Assembly (NCBI RefSeq): GCF_963665355.1
Contig: NZ_OY762229.1
Span: 3,658,001-3,722,000 of the forward strand
Origin: an uncultured Desulfobacter sp.
GTDB lineage: Bacteria > Desulfobacterota > Desulfobacteria > Desulfobacterales > Desulfobacteraceae
Length of the DNA: 64,000 nt
Reading direction: 5' to 3'
The translations under genes and the position numbers were made by a program. Numbering within the stretch: the stretch's first letter is position 1; each line of letters starts with the position of its first letter. The notes below the pieces were generated by a model, which made no database searches, was not told the DNA's origin, and was given only the letters and a program-made list of their open reading frames with translations. Positions 14,045 through 20,670 of the stretch are shown one piece after another.

Positions 14045-14180
14045 TGTTTATCCTTGTTAAAAATTAAACCTCTATATTTAGCAGTTATTAGTTAATAATT
14101 CAACATTCACAAAAATTTCCAGCTGGGGTCATCTTACTCTTTCCAACGTGCCGTTTGATGAATTCAGCCGGGGGCACCTC

Positions 14181-14354
14181 CCTATCGCTATCGGTATCGC
14201 TATCGCTATCGAGCGGTCCTGAAATCAATTTTGATTTTGACCTATCCATCCGGGTAAGGAAAAATTCGGTTTCAGTGCTGGGCACTGAAATTTTTTCGAG
14301 AGCGAGAGCGATCCCGATAGCGATAGCGATGGAGACGCGGGGTGGAAAATTTGA
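14181..14354. repeat. GATAGC-type repeat element flanking the DGR, left copy
   Basis: An inverted-repeat element. The left arm is made of CTATCG units (14181-14212) and the right arm of CGATAG-like units (14297-14330). The centre holds TTTCAGTGCTGGGCACTGAAA, itself a hairpin, and the tail reads GCGGGGTGGAAAATTTGA. The right copy at 19131-19300 has the same architecture, orientation, central hairpin and tail, with several substitutions. Confidence 0.75.
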
Positions 14355-14520
14355 ATTGGAGATTTGATTTTGAATGTTTTTGGCGGTAATATTCATTCCC
14401 ATAATTTCCTTTGTTTTGATATGTTGCCTTTTCCTTTAACGAAAATTGAATGGCCTTCTTCATGGATTGATATGTTATGCCTGGGAAGCTGCCGAAATTG
14501 CTGCACAAGGAGGTATGTGG

Positions 14521-17118
14521 ATGCGCAGGTTTATTTCTGTTTTCACGACATTTTTATTTTTAGTCTCTACGTCTGAATGTATGGCATATGACTGGGTGGT
14601 TTTACCTTCTGATTCAAAAGATAAAATCCATGGTGCTGTGGAAAAGGAGGTCGGCAAAAAGAAAAATTATGATTCCGGAAGCTTTAAGAGGGATGCCATC
14701 GAAAAGGCAGAGGAAGAAGTTTATCTGAAAAACAAGGAGATCAGTGATAACCTGATAACTCTCAGAAATAACTATAATCACTATAAAGACAGACGGGACG
14801 CGCAAAAAACCATTTGTGACAATCTAAAAAGCGTACTGGATAAAGAGGATGTAAAATATAAAACCGCCATTGACAGCGTTGAAAAACTTAAAGGGCAGCA
14901 AGAGGAATATATCAAGGAGATCTTTCTTCAAAAGGGTCATTTGGAAAACAGATTGTTAAACGAACCTGTGGGAGAAGTCGTCACCGCCACGCTCTACAGT
15001 ACCGGATGGAATAAGAAAAAATCCGATCTTGAAACCCAAGCGGATGCAGCGGCAGCGGAAACAGCCGTTGAAACCCTGATGACATATATTGAATCTTTTT
15101 CCACACAAAAAGAGGGCATACTTTCAAACGATGTTATTACCAGCCATAAATCCGGGAGGGCTGATGCCGTCAAAAAAATCCTGGAACATAAAATCGCAGC
15201 CGGAAAATATCTAAGGATAAAAAGCTTTAGAATTTATCCCCTTAAAGAAACGGTTCATCGCTCAAAGATGGATTCAATGAATTCTTCCTGTGAAACCACC
15301 ACAGTCTTGAATGAGTCGATGCTCCATGATTTTTTAAAAAAGAATAACATTGAACTGCCTGAAAATTTTAAAAAACGCATTCGTTTGAAGGTTACGGATT
15401 CACAAACCACCACCGAAAATGATCAAAAGAACACCCATAGCATCATTACCACTCAACAGGCTGTTATCAAAAGCAAGGAAGGCTGCCTTCAAAACGTTAT
15501 TGACAATATTGCCCTTCAGAATCGCGTGATAAAACAGAGCGAAGAAACCAGGAAAAGCCTGGCCCTGGAATTAAAAAACGCTCGGGATCATTTTAAACAA
15601 TGCCTGGGTGATTTGAGTATAGCTGAGCAGGCATATAACAGTGCCAAAAATAATTTAATATACTATACGTTTGAGTCCGGAAGAGAACAGTTGAAAAGAG
15701 ATAAATTGCCGCCTGAAATCGCTGCCGATGCTGTTCTTAGCACACTGAGCCGGGTCAAAGACTCCTCCCGTAAATTCTACTCGGATGTTTTTGAAGAGAC
15801 AAACATGGGCGTTTTGACAATTTCAGAGAAAGGTTCGAAAGAAGTACCTTTAAAAATTGAAAATTTTAAACTTGTTTACATATCAGAAAGCAGTACATCT
15901 GATGATATTGAGATCGGAGCTATTTTTGGGGTTAAAATGGGTAGTCTGCCTGTGGAGAAGGTCGGGGGGGTGCAGTCTTCCGGTTCCCGGATGCAGGCGG
16001 CTTCCCTGCCGCCGGCCAAAGGGTCCCTGGCTGTTGATGCTGTCCCAAAGGATGCGGATGTCAAGATTATGAATATCAAAGAAAAATACCAAAGGGGAAT
16101 GGAACTTGATCCGGGCAGCTACCATGTCCGGGTGGTGGCCCCGGGATATGATACCCAAAATCTTTGGATAGAGGTGGGTCAGGGTGAGGATAAGACCATA
16201 GCTGTGTCTTTGGAGAAGAGCCGAGGGGCGCAGATCGGCTCCCTGCCGCCGGAACCCGGAAGCCCTGAACCTGGAAGAAAGATCTGGACCGAACCGATTA
16301 CGGGCATGCAGTTTGTCTGGGTGCCCGGGGGGTGTTTTCAGATGGGGCAGACCCAGGAGGAAAAGGATTATCTGATCAAAGATGCGGGACAGGAAACCTA
16401 TGATAAGTATTATAAAGATGAATTGCCTCGCCACCCGGTTTGTGTGGACGGCTTTTGGGTGGGCAGAACTGAGGTGACGCTGGGGCAGTTTCGAAAATTT
16501 GTAAAAGCCCGGAGATACAAAACGGACGCGGAAAAGAAGGGGAACGCCTGGATTCTCAATAAATCCACGGGCTGGCAATGGAAAGAAACAGCGGGGCATA
16601 ACTGGATGGATCCGGGGTTCAATCAGACCGATACCCACCCGGTTGTCACTGTCTCCTGGAATGACGCCAAGGCTTTTGCAGGATGGCTGTCCCAGCGTTC
16701 AGGCCGAACCATAACCCTTCCCACGGAAGCCCAGTGGGAATATGCCGCCAGGGCCGGAACCACTTCCATGCGTTTCTGGGGTGACAACAATGCCTGTCTC
16801 TATGTCAATGCGGCTGATCAGACTGCGTTTCCAGGGGATTCCGGTCAAAAGTGGAGCAAGCGGTTTGAGTGCAATGACGATTATTTTTTTACAGCACCCG
16901 TGGGCAGTTTCCGGCCCAACGCCTTTGGTCTTTATGACATGCTGGGCAATGTCTGGGAGTGGTGTGAGGATGTGTATGATAAAAATGCATATGACAAACA
17001 TTTAAGGAATAATCCTGTAATTACCTCCGGGTCTTCCCGTCGCGTGGACCGTGGCGGCAGTTGGGGCCCTTTACCCCAGGTACGTTCGGGCGGCCTACCG
17101 GTGCAGGCGCTCGGCTGA
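14521..17118 (+). CDS. DGR target protein: exported coiled-coil/PEGA-like/FGE (C-type lectin) protein, frameshifted in VR
   Basis: Translation starts at 14521 after AAGGAGG with a signal peptide (FISVFTTFLFLVSTSECMA). Residues about 35-130 and 300-400 are rich in charged heptads (coiled coil). Residues about 500-570 resemble a PEGA domain (GSLAVDAVPKDADVKI). From about 595 an FGE-sulfatase/C-type-lectin domain follows: MQFVWVPGGCFQMG, VTVSWNDAKAFAGWL, LPTEAQWEYAARAG, FGLYDMLGNVWEW. The end lies in the DGR variable repeat. One extra base in CCCTTTACCCC, relative to the template, shifts the frame so the protein ends early at 17118. Without it the frame would continue through RSADGRGSL and FRLCFAPESGRQQ to a TAA at 17180-17182 (886 residues). 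A periplasmic or surface ligand-binding role is likely. Confidence 0.88.
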   Translation: MRRFISVFTTFLFLVSTSECMAYDWVVLPSDSKDKIHGAVEKEVGKKKNYDSGSFKRDAIEKAEEEVYLKNKEISDNLITLRNNYNHYKDRRDAQKTICDNLKSVLDKEDVKYKTAIDSVEKLKGQQEEYIKEIFLQKGHLENRLLNEPVGEVVTATLYSTGWNKKKSDLETQADAAAAETAVETLMTYIESFSTQKEGILSNDVITSHKSGRADAVKKILEHKIAAGKYLRIKSFRIYPLKETVHRSKMDSMNSSCETTTVLNESMLHDFLKKNNIELPENFKKRIRLKVTDSQTTTENDQKNTHSIITTQQAVIKSKEGCLQNVIDNIALQNRVIKQSEETRKSLALELKNARDHFKQCLGDLSIAEQAYNSAKNNLIYYTFESGREQLKRDKLPPEIAADAVLSTLSRVKDSSRKFYSDVFEETNMGVLTISEKGSKEVPLKIENFKLVYISESSTSDDIEIGAIFGVKMGSLPVEKVGGVQSSGSRMQAASLPPAKGSLAVDAVPKDADVKIMNIKEKYQRGMELDPGSYHVRVVAPGYDTQNLWIEVGQGEDKTIAVSLEKSRGAQIGSLPPEPGSPEPGRKIWTEPITGMQFVWVPGGCFQMGQTQEEKDYLIKDAGQETYDKYYKDELPRHPVCVDGFWVGRTEVTLGQFRKFVKARRYKTDAEKKGNAWILNKSTGWQWKETAGHNWMDPGFNQTDTHPVVTVSWNDAKAFAGWLSQRSGRTITLPTEAQWEYAARAGTTSMRFWGDNNACLYVNAADQTAFPGDSGQKWSKRFECNDDYFFTAPVGSFRPNAFGLYDMLGNVWEWCEDVYDKNAYDKHLRNNPVITSGSSRRVDRGGSWGPLPQVRSGGLPVQALG

Positions 17119-17160
17119 TGGCCGTGGCAGTCTTGTGTGTTTTCGTCTCTGCTTTGCCCC
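17043..17160 (+). repeat. DGR variable repeat (VR)
   Basis: 118 bases at the end of the target gene align with the TR at 18801-18917 (117 bases). By hand I count 19 substitutions at TR adenines, one non-adenine change (G to T near the 3' end) and one inserted base. All 11 AAY codons of TR are altered, giving D, G, P, Y, Y, Y, C, R, G, G and L in the repaired frame. The 3' part (TTTTCGTCTCTGCTTTGCCCC) is unchanged, as expected for an initiation-of-homing segment. Confidence 0.93.
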
Positions 17161-17198
17161 CGAGTCCGGCAGGCAACAGTAAGAGCTGTAAAGCAGCA

Positions 17199-17273
17199 GG
17201 GCCTTCGGACTGACAGGGGCGCACGGCCAGAGGGCAATAGCCCCGGCCGTGCCGCCTGTCAGTCCGAAGGCCC
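17199..17273 (+). other. Long composite hairpin just downstream of VR (IMH-associated cruciform)
   Basis: GGGCCTTCGGACTGACAGG (17199-17217) pairs perfectly over 19 bases with 17255-17273. Inside, GCACGGCC pairs with GGCCGTGC, capped by GGGCAATAGCCC. It begins 17 bases after the repaired target stop. DGRs often carry a hairpin just after the homing site that increases retrohoming. It could also end transcription, though no T-tract follows. Confidence 0.8.
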
Positions 17274-17299
17274 CGGCGTTAAGGGATAATGAACATCCA

Positions 17300-17776
17300 A
17301 TGAAATTTAAAATTTTTACCTATCCGGTACCTCCGCCGGAAGATCCGGCAGAGCTGAATTCCTTTTTGTCTTCGGTCAGGGTGCTGTCCGTAAGCCAGTA
17401 CAAGTGCCGGTCGGGCAGTTCTTCCTGTCTGGTTTTTGTTGTGGAGTATCTTGAGGGAAAACCCGCCGGGCAAAAAGGGAAGCCTCAACCCCGGGTAGAC
17501 TATCGGGAAACCCTGTCCGATGGGGATTTTACTCTTTTTTCCCGGCTTCGGGATCTGCGGAAAACCATTGCGGAAAAAGAAGGTGTGCCGGTATATGCCG
17601 TGTTCACCAATGCCCAGCTCTCAGGTATAGTTGAAAAAAGGATAAATGATATGCCGGGCCTGCTGGCCCTTGAAGGCGTGGGCCAGGCCAAAGCGGATAA
17701 GTACGGTCAGGATTTTATCCGGTTGTGCAGGGAAATTTTTCCGGCTCCTGATCCGGGCGGAAGCGCTGCGCCATGA
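17300..17776 (+). CDS. DGR accessory protein with HRDC domain
   Basis: A 158-residue protein. Its C-terminal 70 residues form an HRDC domain: RLRDLRKTIAEKEGVPVYAV, FTNAQLSGI, and MPGLLALEGVGQAKADKYG. This matches the nucleic-acid-binding domain of RecQ helicases and RNase D. HRDC proteins are a known alternative to Avd as accessory factors in some DGRs. The N-terminal half (residues 1-80) has no recognised fold. I chose the ATG at 17300; the longer frame would begin inside the hairpin. Its stop overlaps the RT start (ATGA), implying coupled translation. Confidence 0.85.
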   Translation: MKFKIFTYPVPPPEDPAELNSFLSSVRVLSVSQYKCRSGSSSCLVFVVEYLEGKPAGQKGKPQPRVDYRETLSDGDFTLFSRLRDLRKTIAEKEGVPVYAVFTNAQLSGIVEKRINDMPGLLALEGVGQAKADKYGQDFIRLCREIFPAPDPGGSAAP

Positions 17777-18771
17777 ACCAAAGCGCATGTGCCATGGAAG
17801 CTGTCCTTGAATGGGACAATCTGATGAACGCCTTCCACAACGCAGCCAAAGGCAAAGCCGACAGAAAAGAGGTGATTGCCTTTCGGAAAAATCTGGACCG
17901 CAATATTTTTGCTCTGCAGAAGGATCTGGAAAATCTCACCATGGCATTCGGCAGGTATAGCTTTTTCAGGATACATGACCCCAAAACACGGGATATCTGT
18001 GCGGCTGCTTTCAGGGAGCGGGTTGCCCACCATGCGTTGATCAATGTCTGCGGTCCTGTTCTGGACCACTGTCAGATTCGTCACTCCTATGCCTGCCGGA
18101 AAGGAAAGGGCCAGCACAGGGCTCTGAAAACAGCATCCCAGTGGGCCTGCCATCATGAATTCTTTCTGAAAATGGACGTGGCCCGGTTTTTCGATACTGT
18201 TGATCATGCTGTTCTGAAAAAAATGCTTGCCGGAAAAATCAGGGATGCCAAGGCGAGAGCATTATTCTCAAAAATTATAGATTCATATGAATCTGTGCCG
18301 GGAAAAGGTTTGCCTCTGGGAAATCTTACCAGCCAGTATTTTGCCAATTTTTACCTGACCGGGTTTGATCATTGGATCATCCAGTCGACCGGAGCGGGAA
18401 GATATCTAAGATATATGGATGACATGGTTGTTTTTGCAGATCGTCTGGATCTTAAAAAGCTTAGCAATGAAATTGAATATTACCTTGATGCCAATCTCAA
18501 ATTACGCTTGAAACCAAACCACCAGATTAATCGGACGGAAAACGGCCTGGGGTTTTTAGGGGCCGTGGTTTATCCCGGCCGGTTAAGGTTGAGCCAGGCA
18601 GCCAAAAGGCGGGTCAGCCGTAAATTCAAGGCCAGGGAAACGGCTTTTCAAAAAGAGATCATTTCCGAAAAAGACCTGGCCCATGGCGTTCAGTCTTTGT
18701 GGGCCGGGCTCTGCCACACCCAAAGCCGTGGATGGCGGAAAAATCTGGCCGTGAAAAGCAGAATAGCATGA
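17773..18771 (+). CDS. DGR reverse transcriptase
   Basis: A 332-residue group II-intron-like RT without maturase or endonuclease domain. Motif 3 reads FLKMDVARFFDTVDH (Asp135). Motif 4 is LPLGNLTSQYFANFYL, the LGxxxSQ form diagnostic of DGR RTs. The catalytic YMDD is at residues 214-217, and a thumb-like basic region follows. It copies TR RNA into cDNA with errors at adenines, and the cDNA replaces VR. It lies directly between the HRDC gene and TR, the usual order. The ATG at 17773 overlaps the preceding stop. Confidence 0.95.
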   Translation: MNQSACAMEAVLEWDNLMNAFHNAAKGKADRKEVIAFRKNLDRNIFALQKDLENLTMAFGRYSFFRIHDPKTRDICAAAFRERVAHHALINVCGPVLDHCQIRHSYACRKGKGQHRALKTASQWACHHEFFLKMDVARFFDTVDHAVLKKMLAGKIRDAKARALFSKIIDSYESVPGKGLPLGNLTSQYFANFYLTGFDHWIIQSTGAGRYLRYMDDMVVFADRLDLKKLSNEIEYYLDANLKLRLKPNHQINRTENGLGFLGAVVYPGRLRLSQAAKRRVSRKFKARETAFQKEIISEKDLAHGVQSLWAGLCHTQSRGWRKNLAVKSRIA

Positions 18772-18800
18772 ACCAAGGGATATACCAGGCAAACCCTTCA

Positions 18801-18917
18801 CGTGAACCGTGGCGGCAGTTGGAACAATAACCCCAGGAACGTTCGGGCGGCCAACCGGAACAGGAACTCGGCTGATAACCGTAACAGTAATATGGGTTTT
18901 CGTCTCTGCTTTGCCCC
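18801..18917 (+). repeat. DGR template repeat (TR)
   Basis: A non-coding template 29 bases after the RT stop. It is rich in AAC/AAT codons when read in the target frame (11 AAY codons), the usual way DGRs place mutable adenines. Homology to VR starts at CGTG and continues past 18917 with a few differences into CCCGGCA. A short hairpin (TTTCCC...GGGAAA) follows at about 18955. It has no extra T, so retrohoming from it would restore the target reading frame. Confidence 0.93.
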
Positions 18918-19130
18918 GAGCCCGGCAAAGTCTGCCGGACAGCGTATATTCCTGTTTCCCTGGAAAGGGAACAAAGAGGGCGGGTTAAGATCCGGAACAA
19001 AATAGAGTTCTTGGCGATTACGGACTTGATGTTTCGGATTCTTTCCCGCCTATTTGGGTGACACAAGGAAGGAAAATAAATGATTATCAACCTGAAGGGG
19101 CAGTAAAGCATAAAATGCCCAGGGGGTGGC

Positions 19131-19300
19131 TCGCTATCGCTATCGGGATCGCTATCGAAAAATGATCCTGAAATCGATTTCGATTTCGACTTAAATGTCC
19201 AGCCTTAAAATCACAGCAGAGTTTCAGTGCTGTGCACTGGAATATTTTCGATAGCGATAGCGATCCCGATAGCGATAACGATGCGGGGTGGAAAATTTGA
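19131..19300. repeat. GATAGC-type repeat element flanking the DGR, right copy
   Basis: Same design and orientation as the element at 14181-14354: CTATCG arm (19131-19158), GATTTCGATTTCGA centre, GTTTCAGTGC..GCACTGGAA hairpin, CGATAG arm (19248-19282) and GCGGGGTGGAAAATTTGA tail. The two copies bracket the DGR cassette about 4.95 kb apart. Confidence 0.75.
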
Positions 19301-19499
19301 AAGGCGGTCGAGAATATTGGAGATTGATTTCTCTGATTAGGAAGGAGAAATAGGGTTGAAAAGAAGGCTGGCTTTCTATACGTCCTATACAGCTCCCCCC
19401 AAAAAAAATGTTTATTCAAACCAGGATCGTTTAACGTTTGATATGGATTGTTACCGATGAAATCGACAGTTTTGGGTGTTCTGTCTCAAAATCACCACC

Positions 19500-19528
19500 T
19501 TGACGATACGTACGCCATGGCGTACTAT
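19500..19528 (+). promoter_or_regulatory. Promoter and palindromic operator of the toxin-antitoxin operon
   Basis: TTGACG and TACTAT are 17 bases apart. Between and overlapping them lies the perfect 16-bp palindrome GTACGCCATGGCGTAC (19510-19525). This is the expected place for autorepression by the YefM-like antitoxin alone or with toxin. Confidence 0.65.
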
Positions 19529-19557
19529 TATATAAATTAAGATTCAAGGAGGTACTC

Positions 19558-19800
19558 ATGACAATATTATCCGCTACAGAGGCCCGTTCCAATCTTTACA
19601 GGCTTATTGACCAGACATTATCATCCCATGAACCAATTATTATCACAGGAAAGAGAGGAAATGCGGTCCTTCTTTCTGAAGAAGACTGGAAATCAATTCA
19701 AGAAACAATGTTCTTACTAAATATTCCTGGAATGCGCGAATCTATACAGGAAGGACTGTCAACGCCAGTGGAAGAATGCAGCGAGGATCTTGACTGGTGA
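19558..19800 (+). CDS. yefM: Antitoxin, Phd/YefM family
   Basis: An 80-residue protein with the YefM N-terminal DNA-binding fold: ILSATEARSNLYRLIDQ, then EPIIITGKRGNAVLLSEEDW. The short acidic C-terminus (EECSEDLDW) is the part that would wrap the toxin. A strong AAGGAGG ribosome site precedes the ATG. Its stop overlaps the toxin start. It should neutralise the toxin and repress the operon at the palindrome upstream. Confidence 0.9.
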   Translation: MTILSATEARSNLYRLIDQTLSSHEPIIITGKRGNAVLLSEEDWKSIQETMFLLNIPGMRESIQEGLSTPVEECSEDLDW

Positions 19801-20060
19801 TGTGGAAGGTTGTTTACACAAAGCAAGCACAGAAGGATGCGAAGAAACTTTCTTCATCAGGGTTAAAGTTAAAAGCAAAGGGAATCATAGAGATTTTAAA
19901 GGAAAATCCATATCAAACTCCACCGCCTTATGAACGCCTCATAGGTGATCTATCTGGTGCATATTCAAGAAGACTAAATATTCAGCATAGAATCGTTTAT
20001 CAAATCATAGATGCTGATAAAATTGTGAAAGTCCTTCGTATGTGGACACATTATGAATGA
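19797..20060 (+). CDS. yoeB: Toxin, YoeB/Txe family ribosome-dependent mRNA endonuclease
   Basis: An 87-residue RelE-fold toxin with WKVVYTKQAQKDAKKL at the start, PPPYERLIGDLSGAYSRRL in the middle and HRIVYQI...MWTHYE at the end. YoeB proteins cut mRNA in the ribosomal A site, using conserved Glu, Arg and a C-terminal His-Tyr; here E (in PPYERL), R (in YSRRL and QHRIVY) and the H-Y pair are present, so it looks intact. The start overlaps the antitoxin stop. Confidence 0.9.
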   Translation: MMWKVVYTKQAQKDAKKLSSSGLKLKAKGIIEILKENPYQTPPPYERLIGDLSGAYSRRLNIQHRIVYQIIDADKIVKVLRMWTHYE

Positions 20061-20081
20061 CAGAACAAATTTATCTTTTGG

Positions 20082-20110
20082 TTGACAAGAAATACCATTC
20101 TATCTTAATT
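20082..20110 (+). promoter_or_regulatory. Candidate sigma-70 promoter of the acyl cluster
   Basis: TTGACA and TTAATT are separated by 17 bases, about 130 bases before the first gene of the cluster. The -35 is perfect and the -10 is weak. Confidence 0.35.
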
Positions 20111-20238
20111 TCCGTAAATTATGCGTTTATTCAAAATTTGTTCAATTTTCAATGCCTCTTATGGGCGTGTATTATATATGGATACAGTGATCAATACCGA
20201 TATCTGCCCAAACACCACTTTTTTATCCCTGATGAACA

Positions 20239-20670
20239 ATGAAAATTAAAGACGTTCCCCAACATCCCGGAATTCTGGAAGACTATGGCCATGAGGTGTG
20301 CTATGCCGTTGATGCCGAAGGCAACTATAATCTTGTGCCCAGTATCGGCTGGATGCCCAAAAATATTGCCAACGAACAGGCATGGGAAGTGATTGAGGCC
20401 AATATCAGCCGGGCGGCTGAAAGTATCCTCAGGGGAAACTTGAGCCCCCTTGGGTATTATATGGCCTGCCATCAGATGGATATCAGGCTTTTGGCCAAAT
20501 ATATGGGGCTTTATGGCTGGCAGGTGAAACGCCACCTGAAACCCAAGGTGTTCAGTTCTCTTAAGCCCAGCCTTCTGGAAAAATATGCCGGTTTATTTAA
20601 AGTCCCGGTGGATGACATGACAACACTTGCGGATAAATTGGCCTTGGGCCGCCCAGAAACAGATAAATGA
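20239..20670 (+). CDS. HTH-like protein, first gene of the acyl/BtrH cluster
   Basis: A 143-residue cytoplasmic protein. Residues about 67-130 read like an XRE-type helix-turn-helix domain (LGYYMACHQMDIRLLAKYMG, then LKPSLLEKYAGLFKVPVDDM). The N-terminal 60 residues (HPGILEDYGHEVCYAVDAEG) are not recognised. It overlaps the BtrH-like gene by four bases (ATGA), so it belongs to that operon. It may be a pathway regulator or a substrate-recognition protein; I cannot decide. No strong ribosome site is seen before the ATG. Confidence 0.7.
   Translation: MKIKDVPQHPGILEDYGHEVCYAVDAEGNYNLVPSIGWMPKNIANEQAWEVIEANISRAAESILRGNLSPLGYYMACHQMDIRLLAKYMGLYGWQVKRHLKPKVFSSLKPSLLEKYAGLFKVPVDDMTTLADKLALGRPETDK

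What the first reader, a model, noticed from the sequence alone, without database searches (positions are those of the whole stretch)
14521..18929. Complete DGR with HRDC accessory and FGE/C-type-lectin target
Target gene, VR, post-VR hairpin, HRDC gene, RT with LGxxxSQ and YMDD, and TR are all present in canonical order. By hand alignment, 19 of 20 VR/TR substitutions lie on TR adenines and all 11 AAY codons are changed. The target is an exported protein with long coiled coils and a PEGA-like domain, an uncommon scaffold for display of a variable lectin-fold tip.
Basis: partly seen in the sequence, partly recalled or inferred. Interest (0 to 1): 0.88.

Follow-up and report, generated by a model that had tools for sequence, protein, structure and literature searches.

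The report
Protein-diversifying retroelement with frameshifted target gene

Summary
The cassette is real: target gene, VR, hairpin, HRDC gene, DGR-type reverse transcriptase and TR lie in that order at 14521-18927. VR/TR substitutions fall on TR adenines far beyond chance (20 of 23; P 3.5e-13). It belongs to a common HRDC-type DGR group: 68 of 80 related loci have a homologous HRDC gene before the RT; the nearest RT is in a Desulfobacula MAG, 56% identical. So the kind is known.

The target frame breaks there and stops at 17118, before the lectin fold's conserved end. The target is not complete in this assembly. Of 83 genome TR/VR pairs, five carry such one-base indels inside the mutated block, against none in 33 kb of HRDC genes of the same loci. 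I read it as a by-product of mutagenic retrohoming, which the next round could overwrite; a consensus artefact at a hypervariable site is not excluded.

The target's N-terminal part resembles a protein without the lectin domain; the nearest relative carries caspase heads.

The parts
14521..17118 (+). DGR target gene as it stands in the assembly (865 codons from 14521; the open frame can start at 14446)
   Evidence: ORF; Pfam PEGA and FGE-sulfatase
14521..15840 (+). N-terminal part: hydrophobic leader and long, probably coiled-coil helices; related to proteins in 4 of 388 other genomes of the order
   Evidence: the single-sequence model is too poor to use
16027..16221 (+). PEGA domain (borderline match)
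   Evidence: 20.9 bits against a cut-off of 20.8
16309..17067 (+). FGE-sulfatase / C-type-lectin-like domain, without its last ~30 profile positions
   Evidence: profile 4-223 of 255; Foldseek to FGE and PvdO, and to TvpA 2y3c
17036..17160 (+). VR (variable repeat); alignable to 17171
17063..17073 (+). stretch of the VR that has one base more than the TR; exact place ambiguous; breaks the target frame
17199..17273 (+). inverted repeat, 19-nt perfect arms, 37 nt between them (which fold further), 27-38 nt past the VR
17300..17776 (+). HRDC-domain accessory gene (158 codons from ATG 17300; open from 17249)
17773..18771 (+). DGR reverse transcriptase, LGNLTSQ and YMDD
18794..18917 (+). TR (template repeat); alignable to 18927
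14170..14354 (+). left copy of a dispersed element with inverted repeats (TATCGC units)
19115..19300 (+). right copy of the same element, about 76% identical, same orientation

Best explanation
This is a chromosomal, HRDC-type diversity-generating retroelement. The RT copies the TR RNA with errors at adenines, probably helped by the HRDC protein, and the cDNA replaces the VR at the 3' end of the target gene, which codes for the end of an FGE/C-type-lectin domain on a coiled-coil, probably exported protein. In the cell that was sequenced, the last cDNA most likely gained one base in the adenine-rich block (template slippage), which put the target out of frame. The TR, RT and HRDC gene are intact, so a new round of homing could overwrite the defect. 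Shown: parts, adenine bias, frame break in the assembly, RT and accessory kinship. Inferred: activity, export, slippage as the cause, reversibility.
For: Adenine bias 20 of 23 substitutions (hypergeometric P 3.5e-13). The RT profile matches PDB 8ub7 at 1.6e-69, against 3.4e-34 for the best group II intron RT (that 8ub7 is the BPP-1 DGR RT is recalled). HRDC homologue before the RT in 68 of 80 related genome loci; TR after the RT in 80 of 83 pairs. Frame-changing one-base indels inside the mutated block in 5 of 83 genome pairs; no frame break in 33.0 kb of HRDC (Fisher 0.0009) nor in 63.7 kb of RT genes of the same 65 loci; the detector found 62 of 62 planted breaks. The RGGS start and GFR end of the VR-coded part lie in one frame in 68 of 83 genome pairs; they are split between frames in L060, L082 and L101; 11 pairs show no recognisable motif, L068 among them. 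The window was also scored 'split', but there the GFR hit is by chance; its own downstream frame reads CFR, and the break is shown directly. Slippage by the BPP-1 DGR RT, and 3n indels in AAC repeats, are discussed in PMC12875486 (passages).
Against: The extra base lies beside short runs (GGGG, CCC, TTT, CCCC), where read errors also occur, and its place is ambiguous: 11 placements fit. The other four indel cases (L060, L068, L082, L101) are all MAGs by title, where a mixed VR population can give a false consensus at VRs alone. RT genes were found by a search that favours intact ones, so that control is biased; the HRDC control is less so. 0 of 37 viral pairs has a frame-changing indel inside the block. 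Two viral pairs (L160, L206) were scored 'split' by motif without an indel and were not followed up. No reads were available.
Confidence: 0.6

Rival explanations
1. Same DGR, but the extra base is a sequencing or consensus error, and the real target gene is intact.
For: Short homopolymers at the site. In assemblies of a diversifying culture the VR is the place where reads disagree. All four other one-base cases are MAGs. PMC3521204 (passages) warns of sequencing errors for apparent DGR RT mutations.
Against: The genome is 3 contigs, completeness 100, contamination 2.94; the two neighbouring genes checked match relatives over their full length without stops. HRDC genes in the same 65 loci show no frame breaks.
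Confidence: 0.3
2. The element is dying: a lasting frameshift has inactivated the target, and the cassette is no longer used.
For: Another FGE gene in the genome (G000:C2:2803771) is a broken one that ends at the same RVDRGGSW motif.
Against: RT, HRDC gene and TR are intact, and only 3 non-adenine substitutions and 2 extra bases separate VR and TR over 134 TR bases.
Confidence: 0.08
3. The frame break is bypassed during translation (for example by slippage on the C run that follows), so a full-length protein is still made at some level.
For: Past the break another frame keeps the lectin-fold end (CFRLCFAP) with no stop before it. A DGR RT spread over three frames, yet apparently active, is described for Quimbyvirus (PMC8008677 passages).
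Against: No signal was sought or found; 68 of 83 genome pairs keep both motifs in one frame.
Confidence: 0.02

Closest known systems
HRDC-type DGRs (Treponema denticola; Prosthecochloris plasmid pPAES01)
   Same: HRDC accessory gene next to or overlapping the RT (T. denticola, PMC4891356 passages; pPAES01 annotation); FGE-type gene upstream in pPAES01. TvpA of T. denticola, 2y3c, matches the target domain.
   Different: That paper puts the T. denticola HRDC gene between TR and RT; here the TR follows the RT. pPAES01 also has avd between HRDC and RT, for which there is no room here (HRDC ends 17776, RT starts 17773). The window's VR is out of frame.
Desulfobacula MAG cassette (L055, L054)
   Same: RT 56% identical, 158-codon HRDC gene, TR after the RT; in L055 the same C/T difference between TR and VR near the 3' end.
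   Different: L055 has three VRs for one TR; two of the three targets carry caspase domains, one of these with PEGA; all three VRs keep the frame.
BPP-1 phage DGR
   Same: Adenine-directed VR/TR differences; RT family; hairpin after the VR (PMC3240598 passages).
   Different: TR follows the RT here (in BPP-1 it precedes it: recalled; the viral loci mostly show that order). HRDC in place of avd. The stem is 19 nt plus an inner stem with loop AATA, where that paper gives 7-10 bp and GRNA loops for phage DGRs.

Membership tests
Diversity-generating retroelement | TR/VR pair with substitutions confined to TR adenines | tested here: met
   20 of 23 on adenine, P 3.5e-13
Diversity-generating retroelement | RT of the DGR clade with (I/V/L)GxxxSQ in motif 4 and YxDD | tested here: met
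   LGNLTSQ, YMDD; 8ub7 far above group II RTs. No tree was built; the motif rule is recalled, and PMC3521204 names the SQ motif (passages)
Diversity-generating retroelement | VR at the 3' end of an open target gene with a C-type-lectin or Ig-type fold | tested here: inconclusive
   FGE fold yes; the VR is not in frame to its end in this assembly
Diversity-generating retroelement | accessory protein (Avd, HRDC or other) | tested here: met
   HRDC 1e-17
Diversity-generating retroelement | hairpin just after the VR and not after the TR | tested here: met
   19-nt arms after the VR; best arm in the 100 bases after the TR is 6. But the three VRs of the nearest relative L055 have arms of only 4-5 nt
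Diversity-generating retroelement | VR varies among cells while the TR does not | not testable with these tools
   no reads, no close relative
HRDC-type DGR group | HRDC gene directly before the RT and TR after the RT | tested here: met

The most novel reading that the evidence does not exclude
HRDC-type DGRs leave single-base indels in the mutated block at a few per cent of homing events, so besides changing the binding tip they switch the whole target off, and the next homing event, copied from an in-frame TR, switches it on again: diversification and phase variation in one device.
Probability: 0.12. Interest if true: 0.7.

Novelty: new member of a known kind. Interest (0 to 1): 0.36.

Why it matters
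The cassette itself adds one more HRDC-type DGR, probably in a sulfate reducer (from the kinship of its nearest RT). What could matter is the frame break: if DGR reverse transcription makes single-base indels at a measurable rate, a share of every diversified population is null for the target, which bears on how DGR targets are selected and on models of RT slippage. The target also shows scaffold swapping: a PEGA/FGE end sits on a caspase in the nearest relative and on a coiled-coil protein here.

Tried and rejected
Mobile island between flanking repeats: the two elements at 14170-14354 and 19115-19300 bracket the cassette. Homology with same-genus loci stops at 14103-14106 in 16 of 17 (one of them, L215, close to its contig end; L231 stops at 14063; two paralogous loci, L232 and L233, were left out) and resumes at 20237-20239 in 8 of 8 (one, L236, at its contig end). 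But the two flanks lie 0.78-1.05 Mb apart in the 4 relatives where both lie on one contig, a toxin-antitoxin pair lies outside the right element, and the element is dispersed. So the bracket is no proof of mobility; I did not find an empty site.

Extra VRs in the genome: none beyond the one and a 29-nt match in a broken FGE gene.

Phage or plasmid origin: all RT matches in both collections are under 60% identical, and the 10 listed in each are under 38%; the TR pattern has 0 matches in viral contigs.

Rfam: 4 hits, all far under their gathering scores. Structure of the N-terminal part from a single sequence: useless, mean pLDDT 34. FGE model: good core, last 32 residues under pLDDT 50.

Reading both +1 cases as a duplicated cytosine was rejected as unprovable, since many placements fit. 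My first indel tally used too wide an alignment and counted edge gaps; one search replaces it. One search stopped at adenine mismatches and is replaced.

Rows dropped: L049 (on) and L056 (on) as duplicates, identical TR/VR pairs, and scan hits with fewer than 9 adenine differences. Gaps not counted as inside the block, with fewer than two adenine changes on one side: L063 +6, L122 -1, L140 -1, L170 -3.

Full report
What is there. The window (G000:C2:3658001-3722000 of a 5.64-Mb, 3-contig genome) holds a DGR cassette on the + strand: target gene to 17118, VR about 17036-17160, an inverted repeat 17199-17273, an HRDC gene 17300-17776, an RT 17773-18771 and the TR about 18794-18917. Pfam finds FGE-sulfatase (4.8e-53) and a borderline PEGA in the target, HRDC (1e-17) and RVT_1 (5.5e-11). 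The RT has LGNLTSQ and YMDD.

Adenine bias. Over 17036-17171 the VR differs from the TR at 23 aligned positions, 20 of them TR adenines (31 adenines among 134 TR bases), and has 2 extra bases; P is 3.5e-13 under a hypergeometric model. The bias is as strong over the whole set: 1451 adenine against 62 other substitutions in 83 genome pairs, the window's included, and 545 against 25 in 37 viral pairs.

The frame break. The VR has one base more than the TR between the conserved GGCAGTT and CCCCAGG. Upstream the target reads in the TR's frame; downstream it does not, and it stops at 17118. The lectin-fold end, GFRLCFAP in the TR, is CFRLCFAP in another frame of the VR. In an alignment of 51 lectin domains the G-F-R columns are nearly invariant and the window protein does not reach them. 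Its FGE profile match ends at 223 of 255, and the model has pLDDT under 50 in its last 32 residues. The second extra base, a C near 17161, lies at the 3' end of the block and does not bear on the argument.

Is that unusual, and is it more than bad assembly? I scanned the window, 14 order-level loci and 80 genome-contig loci for TR/VR pairs, and 80 viral loci. After filters 83 genome pairs (in 65 loci; 61 of the 80 genome-contig loci gave one) and 37 viral pairs remain. Inside the mutated block, with at least two adenine changes on either side, there are 11 indels: 5 of one base (window +1, L101 +1, L060 -1, L068 -1, L082 -1) and 6 of a multiple of three, 2 of these viral. The one-base cases are all in genome loci; the four besides the window are MAGs by title. 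In the same 65 loci the HRDC genes (33.0 kb) and RT genes (63.7 kb) show no frame break, while the detector found all 62 planted ones. Fisher tests give 0.0009 for HRDC alone and 1e-5 with the RT, the latter biased because the search favours intact RTs. So generic assembly error does not explain them well; consensus trouble special to hypervariable sites could.

Mechanism. PMC12875486 (passages seen) proposes template slippage by the BPP-1 RT at AC contexts and says that register must be restored to avoid insertions; it cites an earlier survey, not held here, for 3n indels in AAC repeats. The window's extra base lies in or beside an AACAATAA stretch, which fits, but 11 placements are possible, ten of them equally good. 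The searches that joined DGRs with frameshifts or indels were 16,745 papers with 2 of 3 terms, 20 listed; 7 papers, 6 listed; 0. I looked into passages of two papers and saw no report of one-base indels in VRs: PMC3521204 reports frameshifts in RT genes, and PMC8008677 an RT spread over three frames. The others listed were not opened, and subscription papers are mostly not held, so this is no proof of absence from print.

Relatives. The nearest RTs are in a Desulfobacula MAG (56%, L054 and L055); within the genus the closest full-length ones are 34% identical and in 389 genomes of the order the best are 42-46%. HRDC homologues stand before the RT in 68 of 80 genome loci. Prosthecochloris pPAES01 shows the same kind with both HRDC and avd; T. 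denticola DGRs have HRDC genes overlapping the RT, there placed between TR and RT (PMC4891356 passages).

The target. The N-terminal ~440 residues match proteins in 4 of 388 other genomes of the order. The one compared pairwise (L256) gives 29% over 228 residues, E 9e-21. It is a 704-residue frame without an FGE match in Pfam; the other three were not scanned. For two of the four (L258, L259) a frame that I read as a mechanosensitive channel lies beside it (name recalled). In L055 the FGE end sits behind caspase domains in two of three targets, in one with PEGA. The scaffold is thus swapped; PMC10907252 (passages) describes recombination of DGR target ends with distinct N-terminal domains.

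Hairpin. The repeat after the VR folds at -75.6 kcal/mol for 95 bases. Over 80 pairs the best arm after the VR is longer than after the TR (mean 7.85 against 6.86, P 0.004; arms of 8 or more in 39 against 23), but the three VRs of L055 have arms of only 4-5 nt. So the hairpin is plausible as the homing element, not proven.

Verdict. A known, HRDC-type kind of DGR with an overlooked frame break in its VR. The break is worth a cheap sequencing check.

Noticed in passing
window 17160-17171 / 18917-18927 and the genome TR/VR pairs: Near its 3' end the TR/VR homology of this DGR group tends to break at one point: TR reads AGC where the VR has T (31), G (17) or A (1) in place of C, in 49 of 83 genome rows (L060 counted twice, L054 not scored) against 4 of 37 viral rows. 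The window (GAGCCC/GAGTCC) shows it too, though its first non-adenine break in that scan was an earlier G/T. It may be a clade-wide mark that tells donor from recipient.
   Followed up: partly
L007 (G000:C2:2803771-2804292): A broken FGE gene whose last codons are RVDRGGSWF-stop, matching the start of the VR: perhaps a relic of another DGR target.
   Followed up: partly
window 14170-14354 and 19115-19300: Two same-orientation copies of a ~165-185-nt element with TATCGC/GATAGC inverted repeats bracket the cassette; further copies or parts are dispersed in the genome.
   Followed up: partly
window 14104-20238: Same-genus loci share no DNA here; the two flanks lie 0.78-1.05 Mb apart in 4 relatives, so the cassette sits at a rearrangement point.
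   Followed up: partly
window 19558-20060: Phd/YefM-type antitoxin and YoeB/ParE-type toxin pair beside the cassette.
   Followed up: no
L055 4470-6374 and 8260-10011: DGR targets with caspase (Peptidase C14) heads, one TR serving three VRs.
   Followed up: no
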